Source of the DNA: Flavobacteriales bacterium
GTDB taxonomy: Bacteria; Bacteroidota; Bacteroidia; Flavobacteriales; CAJXXR01
DNA length: 64,000 bases
Direction: 5' to 3'
Assembly: GCA_025210805.1 (NCBI GenBank)
Contig: JAOAQX010000004.1
Coordinates: forward strand, 1 to 64,000
The notes under the pieces were generated by a model. That model did no database searches. It was not told the origin of the DNA and saw only the letters and a program-made list of their open reading frames with translations. Position 1 is the stretch's first letter; each line of letters opens with the position of its first letter. Shown here piece by piece: positions 1-13,607 of this stretch. The position numbers and the translations under genes are program-made.

Positions 1-322
1 CACTTCCCGATGGGTCGGGACAGGCTGAACAGATTGAGATATAAAAATTGTATCGAGTTTGTCAGTTCGAGTAGTTTTTGATGGAATGCAGTGGAATCAA
101 AAATTGTATCGAGAATGCGTATGGTTGTCAAAGTTCTCGATACAATTTCTTTTCCGTTGCTCTCCAAAGAAATCACTCGAACTGACAAAAGTGATACAAT
201 TTCTTTTCCGCTGCTCTCCAAAGAAATCACTTGAACTGACAGAGATATAAAAATTGTATTGAGTATGTCAGTTCGAGTGGTTTTTGATGAAATGCAATGG
301 AATCAAAAATTGTATCGAGAAC
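1..322. repeat. REP-like array, left block
   Basis: Non-coding array of about 55-base units that share their ends, GTCAGTTCGAGT on one side and ATTGTATCGAGAAC on the other, but carry two different cores. Core A (61-115 and 267-322) contains TTTTTGAT...ATCAAAAA and core B contains ATTTCTTT...AAAGAAAT, each able to fold on itself. B is reversed at 133-186 and, truncated, at 191-240. Bases 1-30 hold the GC-rich palindrome TTCCCGATGGGTCGGGA, which also occurs inside a B unit at 13541-13562. The small open frames here repeat the same peptide and are artefacts. The array is cut by the window start. Confidence 0.85.
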
Positions 323-1866: not shown

Positions 1867-3135
1867 TTACTTTTTTAGGAGAATTTGTGCCGTTTTTTTG
1901 TTTCTTTCTTCAAGAATAACACTTCCTTTTTTATAGATCTTTTCTAAATCTTTGTTTTGGTAATTCCTTACGGTGTAAAGCACGACTTCTTGGTTATATT
2001 TAAAATGAAAATCATCATTTAACAGATCAAATAATTGTGGAATTTTTATTTCATCAAAAGGAACTACAAAAGAACAAGAAGTAGCGGCATTCTGAAATAA
2101 AACAACGCTTATTTTTAGTTTGTTGAAATACTCAAAAAGAACAGATAACTGTTTCTCAACAATAAAGCTAAGGTCTGGTGAAGAAATAGTTAATAAAAAC
2201 AATTTCTCTTTAACGATTATCGCAGGTACTTTTGGTGAAAGTTCAGTTTTATTGGAAATCAAAGTTCCTTTTTTTTGGGTATCCAAAAAAGACTTCACAT
2301 ATAAATTGATTCCATTTTTTTTAAGTGGCTGAATCGTCTTAGGATGTACAACGCTTGCTCCATAATAAGCAAGTTCTATGGCTTCTCTAAATGAAATATG
2401 CTCATATTTTACCGCATGTTCATTTTTATTTGGATCTGAGTTATAAAAACCATCTACATCTTTCCAAATAGTTAGAGAATTTGCTGATAAGCAAGAGGCA
2501 AAAATAGCTGCTGAATAATCGGATCCTTCTCTACCCAAAGTGGTGGTGAAGCCTTTTTCATCACTAGCGATAAAGCCTTGGCTGATATAAACTACTCCAT
2601 TTTCTGGGCAGATATTTTGGATATTCTCTTGAGTTTTTTCCCAGTTCACTTGTGCTTTTTGAAAATTGCTATCAGTTTTTATCAAATTTTTTACATTGAC
2701 CAATAGACAATTGATTTGAAATTTTTCAAATAAAGTCTGGGTGAGAATATGAGAACTCATCATCTCTCCAAAACTCACCAATTGATCATACACAAAAGGG
2801 TAGGTTTGCTCTTTTAAGGGCTCTAAAAGTTGAATAAAACTCTCAAAATAAACGGTTAAATCAAGTTGAATCTCCAACTGATTTATCATGCCAATATGAA
2901 AATTTTTAAAGGTTTCCCAATGGGTTTTTTCTAAGGTTTTTGTTTTGTAAAAATGACGAATAATATGTTCTAATTGATTAGTCATTTTGCCCATTGCCGA
3001 AACAATCAAAAAAAGTGGCTGATTTGGGTTTTGATGATCTTTGATGATCTTTCCCACATTCATTACTGCCTCAGGAGACTGTAATGAAGCACCTCCAAAT
3101 TTATATACCTTCGTTTGGTTTTGGGTCTTCGGCAT
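1867..3135 (-). CDS. Aspartate kinase (monofunctional)
   Basis: Phosphorylates aspartate, the first step of the aspartate family pathway (lysine, threonine, methionine, diaminopimelate). The amino-acid kinase fold is clear: KFGGAS at residues 12-17, GREGSDYSAA in the middle, and WKDVDGFYNSDP for the nucleotide site. After about residue 300 there is a shorter, divergent regulatory region where ACT domains are expected. At 422 residues it is not fused to homoserine dehydrogenase. Its ATG lies 35 bases inside the 3' end of pdxA, in another frame, so the two are probably translationally coupled. The flippase follows after 2 bases. Confidence 0.9.
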   Translation of the reverse strand: MPKTQNQTKVYKFGGASLQSPEAVMNVGKIIKDHQNPNQPLFLIVSAMGKMTNQLEHIIRHFYKTKTLEKTHWETFKNFHIGMINQLEIQLDLTVYFESFIQLLEPLKEQTYPFVYDQLVSFGEMMSSHILTQTLFEKFQINCLLVNVKNLIKTDSNFQKAQVNWEKTQENIQNICPENGVVYISQGFIASDEKGFTTTLGREGSDYSAAIFASCLSANSLTIWKDVDGFYNSDPNKNEHAVKYEHISFREAIELAYYGASVVHPKTIQPLKKNGINLYVKSFLDTQKKGTLISNKTELSPKVPAIIVKEKLFLLTISSPDLSFIVEKQLSVLFEYFNKLKISVVLFQNAATSCSFVVPFDEIKIPQLFDLLNDDFHFKYNQEVVLYTVRNYQNKDLEKIYKKGSVILEERNKKTAQILLKK

Positions 3136-4354
3136 TATTCTGTTCTTTGGTCTGTTTTTTCTCTACGGGTTTTGATTTTTCTTGTGTAGCTGAATTTTGT
3201 CTAGGTTTTTGCTCTTTATTCTTCGGATTTCTTTTGTCAGAATTTCTTCTGTCAGAATTTCTTTTGTTTTGATGATTGTTTCTTTGATTTAGAAGGGTTT
3301 TCTTGATTTCCTTTTCATCAATTTTATCAACCTCCAGCTGTTCCTCTGTTAAGCGTGTATGGAAAATATCCACAGCAGTATAAAGGGCTTTTCTAAAAGA
3401 ATCTTCGGCAGCCATTCTTTTTCCTGCAATATCATAACCTGTTCCATGATCTGGCGAGGTTCTCACGATCGAAAGTCCTGCCGTATAATTTACTCCGTTA
3501 TTAAAAGAAAGTGTTTTAAAAGGAATTAGACCTTGATCATGGTACATGGCAAGAACTCCGTCATAATTTTTGTATTCTGATGATCCAAAAAAGCCATCGG
3601 CAGCAAAAGGTCCGTAAGCTAATATATTATGCTCGTCCTGAATTTTCTCTATCGTAGGAATTAAAAAATCTTTCTCTTCTGTTCCAATAACTCCTTGATC
3701 CCCAGCGTGAGGGTTGATGGATAAAAGAGCAATTTTTGGTCTGCGAACTCTAAAGTCTTTTCTTAATGATTGCTCAAAAAGTTTGGTTTTTTTAATCACT
3801 AACTCTTCCGTTACTACAGTTGCCACCTCTTTTAAAGGAATATGACCAGTTACTTGGGCAATTTTGAGATGATCATTTACCATAATCATTAGTGAATCAT
3901 CTGCCTCAAAGCGGTCTTTTAGGTATTCTGTATGTCCAGGAAAAGCAAAATCATCACTTTGTATATTATCCTTGTTGATAGGAGCCGTTAGCATGGCATC
4001 AATCTGTCCATTTTTCAAGGCATTTACACAAGCTTCTAGCGCTTCTAATGCAATTGTACCAGCTTCTTTTGTACTCTTTCCCGTTTGTACCGAAACCTGT
4101 TCTGCCTCAATTGGGTAAATGTAAATGTTTCTATTGCTAATATTAGAAAAATCAGTAGTTTCCTTAAAATGAAAATTACTGATTTTTAAATTTTTACGAT
4201 AAAAACCAATTACATGTAATGGGGCGAAAATTACGGGTGTTACTTCATCTAGAAGTCTATTATCTTTAAGTGTTTTTAGGATTACCTCGGGACCTACTCC
4301 GTTAATATCTCCGATGGTGATTCCTAATTTTACACGTCTTTTTTCTGTTTTCAT
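3101..4354 (-). CDS. pdxA: 4-hydroxythreonine-4-phosphate dehydrogenase PdxA with basic C-terminal tail
   Basis: Oxidises 4-phosphohydroxy-L-threonine in the DXP-independent pyridoxal phosphate pathway. Metal-binding histidines are visible at H171 (TGHIP), H216 (NPHAGD) and H272 (MYHDQG), matching the pattern of E. coli PdxA, with the N-terminal ITIGDINGVGPE. The enzyme fold should end near residue 335. Residues about 336-417 are an added hydrophilic tail rich in Lys, Asn, Gln and Arg, with a short internal repeat (RNSDRRNSDKR). The tail's DNA overlaps the start of the aspartate kinase gene. The catalytic identity is secure; the role of the tail is unknown. Confidence 0.93.
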   Translation of the reverse strand: MKTEKRRVKLGITIGDINGVGPEVILKTLKDNRLLDEVTPVIFAPLHVIGFYRKNLKISNFHFKETTDFSNISNRNIYIYPIEAEQVSVQTGKSTKEAGTIALEALEACVNALKNGQIDAMLTAPINKDNIQSDDFAFPGHTEYLKDRFEADDSLMIMVNDHLKIAQVTGHIPLKEVATVVTEELVIKKTKLFEQSLRKDFRVRRPKIALLSINPHAGDQGVIGTEEKDFLIPTIEKIQDEHNILAYGPFAADGFFGSSEYKNYDGVLAMYHDQGLIPFKTLSFNNGVNYTAGLSIVRTSPDHGTGYDIAGKRMAAEDSFRKALYTAVDIFHTRLTEEQLEVDKIDEKEIKKTLLNQRNNHQNKRNSDRRNSDKRNPKNKEQKPRQNSATQEKSKPVEKKQTKEQNNAEDPKPNEGI

Positions 4355-4412
4355 AAATTTTGATTCAGCATTCCTAGTTTTATGAATAAAAGGAGCGTAT
4401 TTTTATAAGAGA

Positions 4413-4655
4413 ATGGTTTTCAATAAAACACTCTCATTTTTTAAACAAGAATTTGTAAAAAGTATTGTTGCTTTAATAGATGTAAATCAAGTGTTTTCGT
4501 TCTTTATGATACGCACTTTTCCTATTACATTCATAGAAAAATCACATAGATCAAACGATCTTCTTTATTCAAATTCTGGTTATTTAGAATATCGTTCGAA
4601 GTTAGGAAAAAAACTTGTAATACTCCCCAAAAATAAACCAGTTCCTAGTTGGTAG
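4413..4655 (+). CDS. Possible small hypothetical protein (80 aa)
   Basis: An open frame of 80 codons opposite in direction to both neighbours, between pdxA and the HNH nuclease gene. I do not recognise it and see no domain, signal peptide or convincing promoter. Aromatic and basic residues are common, as expected from translating AT-rich DNA. It may be a remnant at the edge of the defence pocket or simply non-coding. Confidence 0.2.
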   Translation: MVFNKTLSFFKQEFVKSIVALIDVNQVFSFFMIRTFPITFIEKSHRSNDLLYSNSGYLEYRSKLGKKLVILPKNKPVPSW

Positions 4656-4698
4656 AAATGCGTAAACTAAATATTCAAATATCCGCTAAATCAATTTG

Positions 4699-5676
4699 TC
4701 ACTTTATTATCCCTAATTCCTTAAGTAGATCATTTTTCATTTTACTTAATGGTCTTCTATCAAATTTGGCTTCTTGATAGTGAACTCCAAAAGCTAATCT
4801 ATAAATATCATCTCTATCTAAAGATTTACCTAAAATTTCTTTTTCGAGAGTATCTAAATATTTTTCAGAATAAGCATCTTTAATTTTTATTAAATCGACT
4901 ATTTCATCTTCATGAGTTTCATAAATCTCTTGTAACTTAAATGCCTCAATTGATTTTTTTGAAAATTCACTTTCCTTATTGGTTTTTATCTTGAACTTAA
5001 ATTTGTCATAGTCTTTGTGGTCGAAACTAAAAGAGTATTTGAAATTTTCATCTGGGTTTATATAATAAGGATGAAAGTGAGTTGATAACTCAAAATTAAT
5101 TTCTCCTTTTACACTACAGTTACAAACTGTACAACTAGGAATTAAATTGTAAAAAGATAATGCTAAAATAGGATATTGACCTTTTGGAAACCAGTGGTCA
5201 AATGTTGGTCTTGTTATTTTTTCTCCCTTTTTAGAAATAACTGTTTTAGTGTACATTCTATTACAATAAACACAAGTAGGGATATCTAAATTTTCAGCTA
5301 AATTGTATGCATTATAGAATCTATAAGTACTTGACGTATGATAATTAATAAAGCTATTATAATTCAGAAGTTTTTTTATAGCCGCTATTTCCTTTTTTTT
5401 AGTGAATCTTAATTTTATGTCATCTAATTCTTCTGGAGTGCCGATTAACACTTTCTCAAAATTTTCTTCATTGTTTAAAAATCTAAAAACCACGGCTGGA
5501 ATCCCATGTTCTTTATTAATGTTATTAACCTTTTTAATAGTATTCATTTTTGATAAAGGTGGGGTATCATCAAAACTTGTCCCATTTAATTTTTTCATAA
5601 TGATAAATCTTAAAAATTTGTAATGATTTTCTTTAGCTGAAACTATGGAAGGATTGTGTAAATCAATATGAATCAT
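4699..5676 (-). CDS. HNH endonuclease, PtuB-like (Septu-type defence)
   Basis: 325 residues with a compact HNH/zinc nuclease centre: CVYC at 135-138, FDHWFPK at 159-165 (the His is the likely catalytic base), Asn177, and CTVC at 182-185. This CxxC...DHxxP...N...CxxC layout is that of HNH nucleases partnered with an SMC/ABC-like ATPase, such as PtuB of Septu and the HNH of Ec78-type retrons. The gene starts 2 bases after the ATPase gene in the same direction, so both share a transcript. No reverse transcriptase is nearby, so this resembles stand-alone Septu rather than a retron. The predicted role is DNA or RNA cleavage on phage infection. The nuclease frame is intact. Confidence 0.75.
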   Translation of the reverse strand: MIHIDLHNPSIVSAKENHYKFLRFIIMKKLNGTSFDDTPPLSKMNTIKKVNNINKEHGIPAVVFRFLNNEENFEKVLIGTPEELDDIKLRFTKKKEIAAIKKLLNYNSFINYHTSSTYRFYNAYNLAENLDIPTCVYCNRMYTKTVISKKGEKITRPTFDHWFPKGQYPILALSFYNLIPSCTVCNCSVKGEINFELSTHFHPYYINPDENFKYSFSFDHKDYDKFKFKIKTNKESEFSKKSIEAFKLQEIYETHEDEIVDLIKIKDAYSEKYLDTLEKEILGKSLDRDDIYRLAFGVHYQEAKFDRRPLSKMKNDLLKELGIIK

Positions 5677-5678
5677 AA

Positions 5679-7484
5679 TTATTTTTTTTTATTCTTTAAA
5701 AACTCAATTTCATCATCGATGACTTTGTTATAAAAATCATCTTTGGAAATTAACTCAGATATCATTTCGGCTAACTTCAATCGTATTATTTTATCATCTA
5801 TTATCTCAATTGTTTTTTGATATTTTTCAAGTTCCGTTTTAAACTTTTCAGATTCCTTTTTGGAATCAGATATTTTCTCATTGTCATTTATCCAGTCAAT
5901 CACCTCCTTAATCTTAGATTTTGCAAAATCTCCGATTAAACCATCATCAATAAAAAAACTATCAGACAGCAAATCATGAATATTTGCTCCAAAAGATTTC
6001 ATATGAACTTTATCTTCCTCAGAAAGTATTTTAGTTAAACCACTATCTTTGTCTTTTCTTAGATAGATAATATTTTGTTTTGGTATGTCAGAAAGAGTTA
6101 ATGGGTCATGTGTTGTAAAAATGATTTGCAATTTTTTTTCTTCGAAAATCTTCGGAAGTCCTCTATTTATTAAAGAAACAAATTTCTTTTTCCATTGGGG
6201 ATGAAATCCTAAATCAGCCTCATCTAATAGAATTACATAATGATCAAAGTGACTATATTCACTTCCCATTCCTTCTGATTCAATTTTTAAATCAATTTTC
6301 CTTTTCAAATCTAAGAAACTAGCAAATAGTTCATACATAGCTCTTTATCCCGTACTTAATTTTCTTGATGGATGAAAACTCAGTAAAGGACTATTTGAAT
6401 ATTTCAGATTTGTTTTAAAACTCATTAGATAATCTTGATAAAGTTTGATAACATTTTGAGTTTCTGAGAATGATATTTTAATTTCTGTTGTAAGTTTCTG
6501 AATTTCAAAACTATCATTAATTAAGTTAATGATATAATCAATAAACGGTTCAATTTTATCAAATTCAAACAACGAACCACTGGCATTTTTTGTAGTGGCA
6601 TTTTTTAGGAAATGTTTTATTTGTTCTAATGCATTTTGCCCCTTAACACCATCATTACTATACTCACCTTCGACAAGTATAGAGTTTCCATTATACTCTA
6701 GAATTTGATTTATTTTCTCTAAAAATGAAATTAGAAAATTGTACCTTAGACGTATTTTATATATAGATATACGGTAATCAAATTTTTCTTTAGAATTATT
6801 GTCTAAAGAATTAATCATAGCGTCTCTTTCTTCTAACAACAATTTACTAATAGATTCAAATAATTGTCTGAATTCATATGGTGTGTTATTATGTACTTCG
6901 TCATGTCCTTTAAATTCTAAAATTATTGAGTCAAAAATTGGCAACTCTAAATCTTTTAAAAAATCATTTTCTGTTAATCTTATTATACGTTCAATTGCAA
7001 AGGAATTATGAAGTTCATTAGCAACTTCAAAACTTACATCACGATTAGAAATATCTTCCTTTATTTGGCAGTATTTTGAAAGATTAAACCTATTATATTG
7101 ACAGTATTCATTTTTGTCTAACGAGTAATGTGGGGAGTAATAGATAAATATACTTTGAGGTTGTCCATCAGTGTTTTTTTTAGTGTATTGCAATAAACTT
7201 TGATCCTTAAGTATGGCTTCTAGGAGCGTAGTTTTTCCTGTGCCATTTCCTCCAACAATTGCTGTGACGGAAATGAGATTATCACTCCAGAATTCATGTA
7301 GATACGGAATATCTTCTTCAGTGCCAAAGTATTGAGTGTATTTATGATTACTTGATTGTGAAACTACTTTGTAAGGATAATCTATTTTTTTCTTTATACC
7401 AAAGTTAATGACAAACTGCTCATGGTTTTCACCGAATATGTGTTTTAAATAGTTATCTGAAATAAATATTCCTGTTATTGGCAT
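5679..7484 (-). pseudogene. AAA/ABC-type ATPase, PtuA-like, interrupted by in-frame TAA
   Basis: One ATPase of about 600 codons read in a single frame but broken by a TAA at 6345-6347. The N-terminal part (379 aa) has Walker A GGNGTGKTT at residues 78-86 and ends ...RKLSTG. The C-terminal part continues in the same frame as RAMYELF and carries Walker B (VILLDEADLGFHP) and the H-loop (IIFTTHDP). The stop replaces the Glu of the LSTGE signature and fits one GAA-to-TAA change. An ATG (6336-6338) follows two codons later, so reinitiation could make a split protein. It heads a two-gene unit with the HNH nuclease. A disabled gene, split protein, readthrough or sequencing error are all possible. Confidence 0.75.
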
Positions 7485-8144
7485 ATTTTTAAGTTGTTTT
7501 ATTAATTTATTTAGCTGTTCTTCAATTAAATTGATTTGCGATAGCTTAAACGAATAGACGTAATGTACGATTTATAAGTAAGATAAAACGATATTTTGTT
7601 CATTTTTTACGTTTGTTTAGAAGTGCGATGTAAAGGTGATTCTATGCTATACGCACGAATTCCCTAAATAATTTCTACCCCAAGCTTCGACGCTGTCGCT
7701 ATGATCCCGAAAGGTCGGGACGGGCTTTTCATTTCTTTTGCTTGCCCAAAAGAAACGAAAAGAGCAATGATCGATTATCATTGTGATTCGAAAAGGGCAC
7801 CTTTTGGAAGGTATTTTTTGATTAAAAATCAAAAACCATATTTGATTTTCTAAATTTCCTCCAAGGCTTATTCACCTATTGTTTATAGATTTTGGTGTTC
7901 ATCTGTTTGGCTACCCGCCTCGGGTCGGAAATTCTTAACGAAAATCAAACATTATACTGACTAAAAAGACATACTCCATTTCTGAATTACTTGAGAAAAA
8001 CATACGGATAAGTATTATGAATTATATTTTTAACTATTGATATTTAATTGTATATATTGTTTTTTTAATCGTAATTACTTTCATTCAAAGAACGTTTTGA
8101 AAGCTAGGTGTTCTCAACACTAAAACAATGCAAATACCAATCAA
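7485..8144. other. Intergenic region with scar-like repeat DNA
   Basis: About 660 bases without a credible gene between the defence ATPase and the porin. The part nearest 7484 is very AT-rich and must hold the ATPase promoter, though I cannot place one with confidence. Around 7675-7765 the DNA is more GC-rich and contains the inverted core CCCGAAAGGTCGGG, then a segment that reads CCCAAAAGAAACGAAA. Near 7911-7926 there is a second core, CCCGCCTCGGG. These resemble the palindromic core in the REP-like arrays at 1 and 13541. A 61-codon frame over this stretch (7647-7832) is judged spurious. Confidence 0.5.
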
Positions 8145-9245
8145 TTAAAAGCGTATTTGTGTTCTTAGCCCTAATAAATGCCCAATAGATTTTCCGTTTT
8201 GAGTAAGGTGAATATAATTGAAGGCAAGTCTTGTTTGAGTATCAATATGCCAATTAAGTGCTAGAGTATGATTGAGTTCTGATAAATTAGTAAGTGTATT
8301 TTTTATATAATTTGAACGAATTCCAATTTCCCAAGCACCTCTTTTTGAGCTAGGTGTTGTTTTTCCTAAAGGCGAAAGCGTATGGGCATAGCTTTTTTTG
8401 TCAGGAGTTAAAAAATAGGATGCTTGGAGATAAACCATATTTAACTGGTCATCGTTTTGCTGTTTTTTTACTGCAATATGTGTGAATTCTGATTGAAAGC
8501 TCCACCTTTTATAGATTCCTAATAATCCAATATTAAAAGTATTTACATGATTTACATCAATGCTTTTAGATGACCTAAAGTGTTTGTTCATAAAAAACTG
8601 CTCAACCCCACCTGTGTATTCCCAAGTGTTTTCGGGCATTTTTCTGTGATTCAGAGCAATATCGGCATGCCAGAGTGCATGCTGTGTACGGTGAAACACA
8701 GAGGAAAGCCTAGCAGTTACATGATAATCTTGATCTAAATTATTGACATATCCTTTTGGATCATCTTTAGAAAAAGAAAAGGCATAATTGAGTTTTTCAT
8801 GTTTTATTAACTCGTCATAAATCATTATTCCAATGGTCCATTTTGGAGAGAGTCTGTCATTAAAAGATCGCTCTATAAAGGTCATATTGAGTGCATTGTT
8901 TAATACATCTAATCGGTAAGGATTTACGATTGATCCAATTTTTATTTTACCAAAGAAAGGAATCTTGGTATTTTCTATATAAACATTTCTATAAATTACT
9001 TTTGATTTAATAAATCCAAACTGAACTACATAGTTCCAATGAGAATGAAGTTTGCCAGAAGCTTTTAGTCTCACTTGCCTAAACCCTAAATTGCTTTGTG
9101 AAGCAACCTTGCTGGTATCAGTACTATATAACCATGCTCCATCTACAATAATTCTTCCACCAAATTTTGCGGTGGGTTGAAAGTTTTGAGCCCAAGAAAA
9201 ATGCGATACCAATAGGATGATCGCAAAAATCAGTTTTTTATTCAT
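8145..9245 (-). CDS. Porin O/P family outer-membrane protein
   Basis: 366 residues beginning with a signal peptide (MNKKLIFAIILLVSHFSWAQ) and otherwise made of alternating amphipathic strands ending in an aromatic residue (RTQIRF), as in outer-membrane beta-barrels. The early FGGRIIVDGAW and FRQVRLKASG segments match the start of phosphate-selective porin O/P proteins. It should form a diffusion channel for anions, possibly phosphate, but specificity cannot be read from the sequence. It stands alone: a repeat-rich gap lies downstream and the divergent rhodanese gene upstream. Confidence 0.78.
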   Translation of the reverse strand: MNKKLIFAIILLVSHFSWAQNFQPTAKFGGRIIVDGAWLYSTDTSKVASQSNLGFRQVRLKASGKLHSHWNYVVQFGFIKSKVIYRNVYIENTKIPFFGKIKIGSIVNPYRLDVLNNALNMTFIERSFNDRLSPKWTIGIMIYDELIKHEKLNYAFSFSKDDPKGYVNNLDQDYHVTARLSSVFHRTQHALWHADIALNHRKMPENTWEYTGGVEQFFMNKHFRSSKSIDVNHVNTFNIGLLGIYKRWSFQSEFTHIAVKKQQNDDQLNMVYLQASYFLTPDKKSYAHTLSPLGKTTPSSKRGAWEIGIRSNYIKNTLTNLSELNHTLALNWHIDTQTRLAFNYIHLTQNGKSIGHLLGLRTQIRF

Positions 9246-9318
9246 ATTCTTATTTGTGGTTTGTCTTTACGGCAAACTTAGAAATTGAGAATTAGGGTGC
9301 TCGTGCTTTTTGTCACTA

Positions 9319-9346
9319 TTGATTTTTAATCACTTGAATATTTTTG
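9319..9346 (+). promoter_or_regulatory. Predicted Bacteroidota promoter of the rhodanese gene
   Basis: TTG at 9319-9321, 17 bases, then TATTTTTG at 9339-9346, matching the -33 TTG and -7 TAnnTTTG pattern. It lies 21 bases upstream of the ATG. Confidence 0.5.
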
Positions 9347-9367
9347 CACTAAGAAAACCATAAAAAG

Positions 9368-9721
9368 ATGAAAAAATTGGGAATATTAGCCACTTTTCTT
9401 TCCATGATTTCTGGCGGAATGGCACAAACCGCTGAAAATGTAGAAAACATAGGGAAGTCTCAACTCGAAACCGTTTTAGACACAAAGAATATTGTAGTCC
9501 TTGATATCAGAACACCGCAAGAATTTCATGCTGGGCATCTGCCCAAAGCAAAAAATATCAACTATTTTGATAGAGATTTTGCCCAGAAAATTCAAAAACT
9601 GGATAAAAATGTTCCTTATCTTTTGTATTGTAGATCGGGTAATAGATCTGGAAGTGCTTTAAGGTATTTTAAAGAATTTAAAAAAATCTATCATCTTAAT
9701 AGAGGATATGGTGCTTTGTAA
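9368..9721 (+). CDS. Periplasmic single-domain rhodanese-like protein
   Basis: 117 residues with a short signal peptide (cleavage likely after GGMAQ) and one rhodanese domain: VVLDIRTPQEFHAGHLPKA, then the active-site loop YCRSGNRSGSA with the catalytic Cys. The CRSGNRS loop fits sulfurtransferases and phosphatase-like rhodaneses. The likely role is sulfur transfer or thiol chemistry in the periplasm; the acceptor is unknown. The gene is monocistronic, with its own predicted promoter upstream and a bidirectional terminator about 115 bases downstream. Confidence 0.85.
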   Translation: MKKLGILATFLSMISGGMAQTAENVENIGKSQLETVLDTKNIVVLDIRTPQEFHAGHLPKAKNINYFDRDFAQKIQKLDKNVPYLLYCRSGNRSGSALRYFKEFKKIYHLNRGYGAL

Positions 9722-9826
9722 GAAACGTGAGTTTGATGTAGGAAATTGATCCCGACTTTTCGGTATCAAAGTGATAGCTTCGAAGTGTAGCTTGCGTCTT
9801 ACGTAGAGATTACGTTAAGAACTAAT

Positions 9827-9867
9827 AAAAAAAAAGGCAATTTTCATCTAGAAAATTGCCTTTTTTT
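9827..9867. terminator. Bidirectional terminator
   Basis: Perfect 10-bp stem GGCAATTTTC / GAAAATTGCC (9836-9860) with a 5-base loop, A9 on the left and T7 on the right. It lies between two convergent genes, the rhodanese gene (+) and the Omp28-like gene (-). Confidence 0.9.
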
Positions 9868-9889
9868 ATTGAGTATCGAGGATGTGATA

Positions 9890-11641
9890 TTATTGAATAA
9901 TCACTCGCTTAGATGTTTTTAAAGTTTCGTTCATCACTTCCAATGTATAGATACCATTGGCAAGATTTTCTTTATTGATAGAAATTAATCCATTATCAGT
10001 ATGATGATTTCCTTGATAAACGATACGTCCAATATTATCCATCATTCTAATAGAAACAGTTTCAGAAATACTATTTTGTAGTTTGATATTAATCAGCCCA
10101 TTTGAAGGATTTGGAAAAACGTCAAACGCTAGAGTATTTGTTTCTTCAAGACCTATACTATTTGTGTTGATATTAAAGAAGATATCTTTACTAGCTCCAA
10201 AATTTCCATTTTCTTCAATAAGGATATTTCCAGCTCCATCAATAAGCTTAATATATCCGGGGTTAAAGTCTCTATCACCGAGAATACCACCGCTTAATCC
10301 GTTACCTTTTTCATCTTCTATAATGAAGCGGTAACAAAGATCTTTGTCTAGTTTGTAGTTTTCTCTAATAAGTTCAGTAGAATTTGAAGTATATCCGTTT
10401 CCAGAAGCGTGAATATCACCATATTGGTCAATAAGTTTCCAAGATATATGGTGTCCAAACCCGTCTAATTTTAATTCAATTGTATGGAAAGAGTGAATAT
10501 CCAATAAAGGCTCTTCAAACTCCAATGTATAAGAATCATCTGCCAATTTCTCATCGAGTCCTTGGTCATTTACATCTATAATTTTTACTTCAAGTTTATT
10601 GTTGGCTTGCGTAGTGTAAGCAAATGTAGGCATAGGAATATCTACAGTACCGAAGGTAGCTAAATTCCCTGTCCAAGTATATTCTTGAACTTGACTATTT
10701 GCTTTAGCTTGAAATTTCACTTTTGTGAGTGGGCTATTACCCATGTTTTCCAAAGTAATTACGGTGCTAATTTTTTCGTCACAAATAGCTGAACGTTTAT
10801 CTTTAGCAACGGCATTTCTTGCATAGTGAACAAATGGTTCAGGGTTAGCTGTAACTACATTTTCAACATTACTAGATCCAGAACTTACAAAAGCAACTAT
10901 TTGAAGATCTTCAGGAATTACTTGCGTTTTTCCAATTAAATCTGGAATATCCCAAGTATATGTTTTTGTAATAAGGTCTCCAACGGTAGGATTTCCTAAT
11001 GATTCACCGAACACTCCGTTTGTAATATAGCCTTTAAAGATATGCTTGTGATTATAATCATCACCTTTTCCTGCTTGTTTTCCAATAACATCATTTTGAA
11101 CAACTGCTATGGATAATTTCTGATCATTTGCTGGAGTACCAGTGTAATAAAGCTCTACATCAACTAAGAATTTTTTGTATTCTACATCATAACGAATCTT
11201 TGCACCTATATTTACATAGGCAAATTGAGTAAGTAAAGTATCTACAGCTTTCACCCAACTAGATTTTCCTATCATGTAATCACCCGCATCTTCTGCATAA
11301 TCTGGAAATAAATTTCTACTAATATTCGCAGAGGGAGTTCCATAAGATGAAGTCGTTTTGCTAAAGCCAACAATTGCGTTATTTTCGTCTTCCATATTGA
11401 AATCATCATCAGGACCGTCAGCTTTTCCATAAAAGTAATAAGCAGAAACCCTGTCGGCTCCTTTTGCTTGAATAATACTTTCTATTTCGGCAGATCCTCC
11501 AGGACATGCTCCACATGTAATGGAAGTAAATTTCTCAATAAGTACATTTTTCTTCTGTACTGTGGTTGAGACTAGGGTTTGAGCGTTTGATGCACTGATT
11601 CCCAGTGATAAAACAGTAAAAGATAATAAAAGATTCTTCAT
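9890..11641 (-). CDS. Omp28-like secreted protein with T9SS type A sorting domain
   Basis: 583 residues: signal peptide (ends ASNAQ), an Omp28/thioredoxin-like region starting KNVLIEKFTSITCGACPGG (about 31-50) with a CxxC motif, beta-rich middle domains, and a C-terminal sorting domain of about 75 residues opening with FDVFPNPSNG and ending RVIIQ. The sorting domain implies export through T9SS and surface attachment or release. The CxxC could be redox-active, but no function is proven. The gene is monocistronic and convergent with the rhodanese gene, sharing its terminator. Confidence 0.85.
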   Translation of the reverse strand: MKNLLLSFTVLSLGISASNAQTLVSTTVQKKNVLIEKFTSITCGACPGGSAEIESIIQAKGADRVSAYYFYGKADGPDDDFNMEDENNAIVGFSKTTSSYGTPSANISRNLFPDYAEDAGDYMIGKSSWVKAVDTLLTQFAYVNIGAKIRYDVEYKKFLVDVELYYTGTPANDQKLSIAVVQNDVIGKQAGKGDDYNHKHIFKGYITNGVFGESLGNPTVGDLITKTYTWDIPDLIGKTQVIPEDLQIVAFVSSGSSNVENVVTANPEPFVHYARNAVAKDKRSAICDEKISTVITLENMGNSPLTKVKFQAKANSQVQEYTWTGNLATFGTVDIPMPTFAYTTQANNKLEVKIIDVNDQGLDEKLADDSYTLEFEEPLLDIHSFHTIELKLDGFGHHISWKLIDQYGDIHASGNGYTSNSTELIRENYKLDKDLCYRFIIEDEKGNGLSGGILGDRDFNPGYIKLIDGAGNILIEENGNFGASKDIFFNINTNSIGLEETNTLAFDVFPNPSNGLINIKLQNSISETVSIRMMDNIGRIVYQGNHHTDNGLISINKENLANGIYTLEVMNETLKTSKRVIIQ

Positions 11642-11712
11642 AAGTGAAAAGTTTAAAATAGGTAAAGATGCACTAAAGTAATGATAATCTTTTATTTAAG
11701 AAAGCTTTGGGT

Positions 11713-11762
11713 AAAAAAAACACTTTGGTATTTCTTAATATAAGTTAAAAAATATCAAAGTG
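11713..11762 (-). terminator. Terminator downstream of hemN
   Basis: Stem 11721-11733 with 11750-11762 (CACTTTGGTATTT / AAATATCAAAGTG, one imperfect pair). On the minus strand it is followed by a run of eight U from the A8 at 11713-11720. It sits 70 bases past the hemN stop. Confidence 0.65.
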
Positions 11763-11831
11763 CTGTTTTAATTTTTCGTCAATTTATTTAGAATTCACAT
11801 CTCTTTTTTGTGAATTTTTGGATTTAATTCT

Positions 11832-13190
11832 CTAAATAGTTTGAGAGAATATTTTGACTTCAGGGTTCATTTTATGTAGGTATTCATCCATAGTCATTGC
11901 TACATTTCTGATAAAGGGTGAACCTTTTTGTGTAATGGTGATTTTGTTCTTTTCAAAACATACTAAACCGTCTTTTTCCATTTCTTCGAGGTCAGTTTCC
12001 ACTTGCTTCCAATCAATAAGATGTCCATCTGTTTTTTCGGTTTCTAGAAAACACATGAGGTTTAGAATATGTTTTCTGATGGCTAAATCATTTTCTGTAA
12101 GTAAATGTCCTTTTACCACTGGAATTTTTCCTTCATCTATTAATTGGTAATATTTGTCAATTTTCTTTTCATTTTGAGCAAATGCTGTCCAAGAATCAGA
12201 AATTGAGGAAACTCCAAGACCAATCATTACATCCGTTTTGGAATCTGAATATCCCATAAAATTTCGATGCATTTTACCATTTACCACAGCTTTATAGAGT
12301 TCATCATGAGGGAGGGAGAAATGATCAATTCCAATTTCTAAATAACCAGCGGCTAATAATTGCTCTTTTGCGTACTCATAAAGTGCTCTTTTTTCGTTGT
12401 CTCTTGGAATATCTTCTTCTTTAAATCCTCTTTGCCCATTTCCTTTTATCCAGGGAACGTGTGCATAGGAGTAGAGAGCAATTCTATCAGGTCTTAGATT
12501 TAAAGTGTTTTCAATAGTCAATATTATAGAAGACATTTTTTGAAAGGGTAGTCCATAAACAAGATCATGACAAATAGATTTAAAGCCTAATTTTCTAGAT
12601 TCTTCTGTAACCCTCACCACATTTTCTAGAGGTTGTATTCTATTGATGGCTTTTTGGACGATAGGATCATAATCTTGAATTCCAAAACTTATTCTGGAGA
12701 ATCCAAAATCGGCTAACACTTGAAGATGTTCTAAGGTTGTATTGTTTGGGTGTCCTTCTAAACTCCATTTTGCATTTGTAGGAACAGTGGCAGTTTCGAT
12801 GATTTTACTCACCAGTTTTTTAAGATTTTTGGGAGCAAAAAAAGTAGGGGTTCCACCACCAAAATGAAATTCCTGAATCACAGGTTTTTCTGGTAAGAAA
12901 TCCAAATACATTTGCCACTCTTTAAGAAGGTATTTAATGTATTTATCTTCAACACTATGATTTTTTGTAATTCTTTTATGACATCCACAAAAAGTACAAA
13001 GACTTTCACAAAAAGGCATGTGAATGTATAAACTAATTCCTTCATCAGAATTGGTAAGTTCAAAAGTCTTTTTTAAGCGATCTTTCCATCCTTCTCTACT
13101 AAAATGATCCATATCCCAAAAGGGAACAGTAGGGTAGCTGGTATATCTAGGACCTTGTACATTGTACTTTTTGATTAAATCTTCCGCCAT
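11832..13190 (-). CDS. hemN: Oxygen-independent coproporphyrinogen III dehydrogenase HemN
   Basis: Radical-SAM enzyme of haem biosynthesis that converts coproporphyrinogen III to protoporphyrinogen IX without oxygen. 452 residues, normal for true HemN. It begins with KYNVQGPRYTSYPT, the HemN-specific N-terminal motif, and carries the 4Fe-4S signature CESLCTFCGC (CxxxCxxC) followed by GGGTPTF. This motif combination separates it from the haem chaperone HemW. The gene is monocistronic with a terminator downstream; its upstream side faces the second REP-like block. hemH (ferrochelatase) is elsewhere in the window. Confidence 0.95.
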   Translation of the reverse strand: MAEDLIKKYNVQGPRYTSYPTVPFWDMDHFSREGWKDRLKKTFELTNSDEGISLYIHMPFCESLCTFCGCHKRITKNHSVEDKYIKYLLKEWQMYLDFLPEKPVIQEFHFGGGTPTFFAPKNLKKLVSKIIETATVPTNAKWSLEGHPNNTTLEHLQVLADFGFSRISFGIQDYDPIVQKAINRIQPLENVVRVTEESRKLGFKSICHDLVYGLPFQKMSSIILTIENTLNLRPDRIALYSYAHVPWIKGNGQRGFKEEDIPRDNEKRALYEYAKEQLLAAGYLEIGIDHFSLPHDELYKAVVNGKMHRNFMGYSDSKTDVMIGLGVSSISDSWTAFAQNEKKIDKYYQLIDEGKIPVVKGHLLTENDLAIRKHILNLMCFLETEKTDGHLIDWKQVETDLEEMEKDGLVCFEKNKITITQKGSPFIRNVAMTMDEYLHKMNPEVKIFSQTI

Positions 13191-13330
13191 ATTGTTTCTT
13201 GTTGTTGCTACAAATTTATGGTGTTTTATGGAGATAGCATTAAATAAGTGTAAGCTACTTTAAGTAATTTAACTCTTTATTCGCTTCCTTAGCTTTTTTT
13301 GATCCGCTTAGAAAGGGGATTGTAAAGGAA

Positions 13331-13607
13331 TTCTCGATACAATTTTTGATTCCATTGCATTTCATCAAAAACCACTCGAATTGACAAAAGTGATACAATT
13401 TTTATATATCTGTCAGTTCGAGTGATTTCTTTGGAGAGCAACGGAAAAGAGTTCTCGATACAATTTTTGATTCCATTGCATTTCATCAAAAACCACTCGA
13501 ACTGACAAAAGTGATACAATTTTTATATATCTGTCAGTTCAGCCTGTCCCGACCCATCGGGAAGTGATTTCTTTGGAGAGCAACGGAAAAGAAATTGTAT
13601 CGAGAAC
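13331..13607. repeat. REP-like array, right block
   Basis: Same unit family as at 1-322. Reversed A units at 13331-13385 and 13451-13506, a truncated B unit at 13412-13450, and a B unit at 13533-13607 interrupted by AGCCTGTCCCGACCCATCGG plus GA. Spacers AAAAGTGATACAATTTTTAT recur. The block is largely the reverse complement of the left block, and both end in GAGAACACC. Confidence 0.85.

What the first reader, a model, noticed from the sequence alone, without database searches (positions are those of the whole stretch)
6336..6356. In-frame stop exactly at the Glu of the ABC signature in a defence ATPase
The minus-strand frame from 7484 reads ...RKLSTG, TAA (6345-6347), RAMYELF... and continues in the same frame to 5679 with Walker B and H-loop. 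LSTGE would be expected, so one GAA-to-TAA change explains it. A stop in the signature would separate Walker A from Walker B. An ATG two codons later allows reinitiation, so a split but still associating ATPase is conceivable. The partner nuclease is intact. Options are inactivation of a costly defence system, a two-piece ATPase, readthrough, or a base-call error.
Basis: partly seen in the sequence, partly recalled or inferred. Interest (0 to 1): 0.75.

Follow-up and report, generated by a model that had tools for sequence, protein, structure and literature searches.

The report
Antiphage ATPase gene inactivated by stop
A two-gene antiphage system in a flavobacterium-like bacterium has a single in-frame stop codon in its ATPase, which most likely switches that copy off; this kind of gene loss turns up repeatedly in relatives, and the same genome still carries an intact second copy.

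Summary
The minus-strand frame 7484->5679 is open apart from one TAA at 6347-6345 (codon 380), immediately after RKLSTG. The gene and its intact neighbour (5676-4699) match PADLOC's PDC-M62A/PDC-M62B, a PtuAB/Septu-like ATPase plus HNH nuclease pair. Across 75 intact homologues the interrupted position is Glu in 70, Gln in 4 and Leu in 1; in the predicted fold it lies in the first turn of the signature helix. No homologue among roughly 240 loci from about 1,960 searched genomes has the same stop or a natural split there. Instead, about 6-7% of loci have an ATPase broken in other ways: four other single nonsense codons, five frameshifts with the nuclease intact, IS or 5' losses. The window's genome has an intact PDC-M62 pair elsewhere, an intact Septu pair, and no ochre-suppressor tRNA among the tRNAs found. 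Best explanation: recent single-step inactivation of a PtuAB-like defence ATPase. Two-piece ATPase, readthrough and assembly error are minor alternatives; only reads could exclude the last. One oddity, weak and noticed after the fact: three of five nonsense codons fall inside ATP-binding motifs.

The parts
6345..7484 (-). 5' part of the ATPase gene (PDC-M62A-like), 379 codons, contains Walker A, ends RKLSTG then TAA
6345..6347 (-). in-frame TAA at the position that is Glu in 70 of 75 homologues (ABC signature)
5679..6338 (-). 3' part of the ATPase gene in the same frame, 219 codons from an ATG that is the third codon after the stop; Walker B, H-loop, C-terminal helices
4699..5676 (-). HNH-type nuclease partner (PDC-M62B-like, PtuB-like), 325 aa, open frame, starts 2 bases after the ATPase stop

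Best explanation
This is a PtuAB/Septu-like antiphage pair (PADLOC PDC-M62) whose ATPase has been inactivated by one recent nonsense mutation. Translation of the ATPase stops after the LSTG of the signature motif. The product has the nucleotide-binding P-loop but lacks the signature helix, Walker B, H-loop and C-terminal region, so no complete ATP site can form and the nuclease is not activated. The nuclease reading frame remains, probably translated less well or harmlessly. Shown: the stop, the family, the intact partner, the absence of the stop in relatives, recurrent independent breaks in relatives. Inferred: loss of activity, harmlessness of the nuclease alone, and that the loss was tolerated or favoured because the system is costly or redundant with the intact second copy.
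For: Whole-length homology across the stop. Signature Glu conserved in 70/75. Of 40 columns invariant in 14 intact relatives the window gene keeps all but the stop and one Glu-to-Asp; over near-invariant columns it departs in 3 of 58, within the range of intact relatives (0-8), so the lesion looks recent. No second lesion in the frame. Relatives show the same kind of loss independently: TAA in Walker B of Chryseobacterium mucoviscidosis, TAA inside Walker A in G1453, TAA at about codons 277 and 289 of the open frames in G439 and G1449, frameshifts in G491, G417, G492, G475 and G1609 with the nuclease intact. 222 distinct intact A genes against roughly 15-17 broken or 5'-truncated ones. Same genome: intact PDC-M62 pair on contig C18 (46% and 50% identity over the aligned regions) and intact Septu pair on C34. 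In studied PtuAB systems, Walker A/B substitutions in PtuA abolish defence (PMC13096335), and PtuB alone does not arrest growth while PtuA+PtuB does (PMC11555353), so losing the ATPase should disarm the system safely.
Against: No expression, phage-challenge or read data. An ATG closely follows the stop, so a C-terminal piece could be made. Mechanistic facts come from other PtuAB systems, not from PDC-M62.
Confidence: 0.84

Rival explanations
1. Sequencing or assembly error: the gene is really intact.
For: Only one draft assembly (34 contigs) is available and one base explains the stop. No reads could be checked.
Against: A substitution outside a homopolymer is an unusual assembly error. Nonsense alleles occur at about 2% in this family (5 of about 240 loci), more than expected from ordinary assembly error rates (inference; assumed 1e-5 per base or better), although some of those could be errors too.
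Confidence: 0.09
2. Two-piece ATPase: the N-terminal part and a reinitiated C-terminal part associate and work.
For: ATG is the third codon after the stop in the same frame; the C-terminal part keeps all conserved motifs.
Against: No relative is split here among about 240 loci. The cut is at the start of helix 385-407 in the model of the intact paralogue, separating LSTG from its own helix, which should damage the ATP site. Conserved motifs in a recent pseudogene are expected anyway.
Confidence: 0.03
3. Programmed or phage-induced readthrough: the stop is a conditional switch and full-length ATPase is made only when TAA is read through, for example by a phage suppressor tRNA.
For: Three of five single nonsense codons found in this family lie in ATP motifs, more than a uniform expectation (post hoc P about 0.0001-0.002 including the window case, which was selected for this).
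Against: No suppressor tRNA with anticodon UUA found in the host. Stops are at different places in different species and absent from more than 220 relatives. No conserved readthrough context was seen.
Confidence: 0.02
4. Reversible contingency: the ATPase is switched on and off by frequent mutation.
For: Several relatives have frameshifts at or near A-rich runs (G491 after Walker B, G475, G357).
Against: The window lesion is a substitution, not a repeat-length change, and no repeat lies at the site.
Confidence: 0.02

Closest known systems
PADLOC PDC-M62 (PDC-M62A ATPase + PDC-M62B HNH protein), candidate system reported as overlapping with Septu
   Same: Both proteins match end to end in the expected order; PMC11811056 treats many PDC-M62 calls as Septu.
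   Different: ATPase interrupted by TAA at codon 380.
Septu PtuAB (8ee4, 8eea) and retron-Eco7/Ec78/Ec83 PtuAB (9n69, 9kjx, 9e8z)
   Same: Best PDB sequence matches and the top Foldseek matches for the model of the intact paralogue (E=2.7e-8) are PtuA chains; HNH partner.
   Different: Far below the NCBIfam PtuA cut-off (58.5 against 500 bits); TM-scores to PtuA chains are low (0.13-0.30); no reverse transcriptase next to the window pair.
Nonsense-broken PDC-M62A homologue of Chryseobacterium mucoviscidosis VT16-26 (L008)
   Same: One TAA in an ATPase motif, intact nuclease downstream.
   Different: Stop is at the Walker B Glu, not the signature.

Membership tests
PDC-M62 (PtuAB/Septu-like pair) | ATPase matching PDC-M62A over its length | tested here: met
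   E=4.6e-67, residues 3-600 read across the stop
PDC-M62 (PtuAB/Septu-like pair) | adjacent HNH-type partner matching PDC-M62B | tested here: met
   E=1.6e-59, residues 1-323; CxxC..DHWFP..CxxCN kept
PDC-M62 (PtuAB/Septu-like pair) | complete ATPase reading frame with Walker A, signature, Walker B, H-loop in one protein | tested here: not met
   TAA at codon 380; so it is an interrupted member, a pseudogene of the family rather than a working one
Canonical PtuA/PtuB (NCBIfam equivalogs NF041760/NF041761) | score above curated cut-off | tested here: not met
   58.5 of 500 bits and 18.8 of 150 bits
Retron type I-A / Septu type II | reverse transcriptase and msr/msd next to ptuAB | tested here: not met
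   no RT-like ORF seen beside 4699-7484 by inspection; neighbours look like a PdxA-like gene and a porin-like gene; msr/msd not searched
PDC-M62 (PtuAB/Septu-like pair) | antiphage activity | not testable with these tools
   needs a phage challenge

The most novel reading that the evidence does not exclude
Nonsense codons in this ATPase family are not random losses but are concentrated in the ATP-site motifs, because some selected or conditional mechanism (for instance readthrough during infection by phages with suppressor tRNAs) makes an active-site stop useful.
Probability: 0.03. Interest if true: 0.7.

Novelty: new member of a known kind. Interest (0 to 1): 0.22.

Why it matters
It is a clean natural example of a defence system switched off by one base while everything else is preserved, with an intact paralogue in the same genome. 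The survey gives a rough frequency of ATPase loss (about 6-7%) in PDC-M62/PtuA-like pairs of Bacteroidota and hints, without statistical significance, that the ATPase is lost more often than the nuclease, which fits the report that PtuB alone is harmless. If the concentration of stops in ATP motifs held up in a larger sample it would need explaining.

Tried and rejected
Same stop in relatives: searched about 1,960 whole genomes, genome contigs, plasmids, phages and viral contigs; none has it, and phages and viral contigs gave no relative at all. Natural split at the signature: none found. Ochre suppressor tRNA: not among the tRNAs found; a few weak tRNA-like hits were not resolved. Folding the intact paralogue without an alignment failed (pLDDT 36); with 75 sequences it worked (pLDDT 86, pTM 0.87). 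Is loss biased to the ATPase? About 10 single-gene breaks in A against 2 in B; at the 65:35 length ratio this is not significant (binomial about 0.08 for 9 or more of 10, computed before the second B case was found). Is loss biased to ATP motifs? 3 of 5 nonsense codons; leaving out the window case 2 of 4; suggestive but post hoc, and further searching added no new nonsense allele, so it stays unresolved. Homology to solved structures rests on sequence and Foldseek E-values; global TM-scores are low and were not used as proof of fold identity.

Full report
Check of the observation. The sequence and frames are as described. The minus-strand ORF from ATG 7484 ends at TAA 6347-6345 after 379 codons; the same frame continues without another stop to 5681-5679. 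An ATG lies at 6338, third codon after the stop. The nuclease ORF 5676-4699 begins two bases after the ATPase stop.

What it is. Read across the stop, the ATPase matches PADLOC PDC-M62A (PDLC04733) from residue 3 to 600 (E=4.6e-67), and each piece matches its own part of the model; the partner matches PDC-M62B (E=1.6e-59). Pfam gives AAA_21 for the ATPase; canonical NCBIfam PtuA/PtuB models match only weakly, far under their cut-offs. The nearest solved structures by sequence are PtuA proteins of Septu and of retrons Ec78/Ec83. A model of the intact paralogue from the same genome, built with 75 homologues, is confident (pLDDT 86, pTM 0.87); its PDB matches with E<=0.001 are PtuA or PtuAB chains, with low global TM-scores. 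In that model the signature helix is residues 385-407 and the residue equivalent to the stop is 387, in the first turn.

Conservation. In 75 intact relatives the serine and glycine of the signature are invariant and the next position is Glu in 70, Gln in 4, Leu in 1. In 14 distinct intact relatives, 40 columns are invariant; the window gene departs in two, the stop and a Glu-to-Asp at 564. Counted over near-invariant columns it departs in 3 of 58, against 0-8 in the intact relatives. There is no second lesion. So apart from the stop this looks like a gene that was under constraint until recently (inference).

Own genome. G000 (3.12 Mb, 34 contigs) has a second PDC-M62 pair on contig C18 with an intact ATPase reading KLSTGE and its own nuclease, close to a Drt2-type reverse transcriptase and phage-like genes, and a canonical PtuA/PtuB pair on C34. 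ARAGORN on the tRNA loci found no tRNA with anticodon UUA.

Relatives. The family was searched in about 1,960 genomes of the window's class, chiefly Chryseobacterium-like and Flavobacterium-like genera of its own order and the family of G566. Stretches around the hits were taken and translated stop to stop, with A and B profiles used to place the pieces. 222 distinct intact A genes were counted. None has a stop or a split at the window position. Broken A genes: nonsense in C. mucoviscidosis (Walker B Glu; L008, apparently the same contig as G446), G1453 (Walker A, AIVG*NGSGKS), G439 and G1449 (middle region); frameshifts in G491, G417, G492, G475, G1609 and, with a damaged B, G357; one heavily decayed copy (G480) and one with a transposase-like ORF in place of its 5' part and a frameshifted B (G382); a few with no 5' part found or at contig ends (G556, G1567, G1181, G400). 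B broken with A intact: G1070 (TGA next to the CxxCN motif) and G1573 (5'-shortened). Numbers are approximate because several loci touch contig ends and because stops in the first ~70 codons cannot be recognised.

Mechanism. In studied PtuAB systems both ATPase and nuclease motifs are needed for defence (PMC13096335), and PtuA or PtuB alone does not arrest growth (PMC11555353). A protein ending at LSTG has a P-loop but no signature helix, Walker B or H-loop, so it should not form an ATP site. The pair should therefore be inactive and harmless. This is an inference by homology; I found no experimental study of PDC-M62 itself, and PMC11811056 only equates many PDC-M62 calls with Septu.

An unresolved oddity. 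Three of five single nonsense codons lie in ATP motifs. Against a uniform expectation over one-step codons the motif share is 2.4% (narrow) or 5.6% (broad), giving P of 0.0001 or 0.0016 for three of five. The window case was chosen because it lies in a motif, the motif borders were set afterwards, and only two of the other four cases count; I regard this as a lead, not a result.

Verdict. Ordinary in kind: a recent single-step loss of a defence ATPase, with an intact copy elsewhere in the genome. Interest is low to moderate.

Noticed in passing
L071 (G000:C18:15000-34000), 2986-13247: The intact PDC-M62 pair lies near a Drt2-type reverse transcriptase (E=4.6e-133), a 1263-aa protein with no PADLOC match directly upstream of the ATPase, and terminase/recombinase-like genes, so probably a mobile or prophage-borne defence cluster.
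   Followed up: partly
L072 (G000:C34:94000-106000), 3855-5749: A canonical Septu PtuA/PtuB pair (E=4.3e-170, 2.4e-71) in the same genome; three PtuAB-like systems in all.
   Followed up: partly
L112 2-4762, L247 2947-6943, L248 1-3672, L250 1-3642, L251 1-3642: Overlapping A-B-A arrays: two PDC-M62A-like ATPases around one nuclease, without a detected second nuclease. In L112 and L248 they are followed by genes that look like a condensin/SMC-type system by inspection; in L247 by a 978-aa protein.
   Followed up: partly
window 1-321 and 13324-13607: A family of about 90-120 nt repeats in inverted orientation 13 kb apart, 88-93% complementary, flanking the stretch that holds the defence pair.
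   Followed up: no
L064 about 2370, L107 about 3890, L234 about 6290: Frameshifts in ATPase genes of relatives at or near A-rich runs, one right after Walker B; could be slippage, contingency switching or sequencing error.
   Followed up: partly
L147 2937-2939: The opposite case: nuclease with an in-frame TGA just after its CxxCN motif while the ATPase is intact (G1070).
   Followed up: partly
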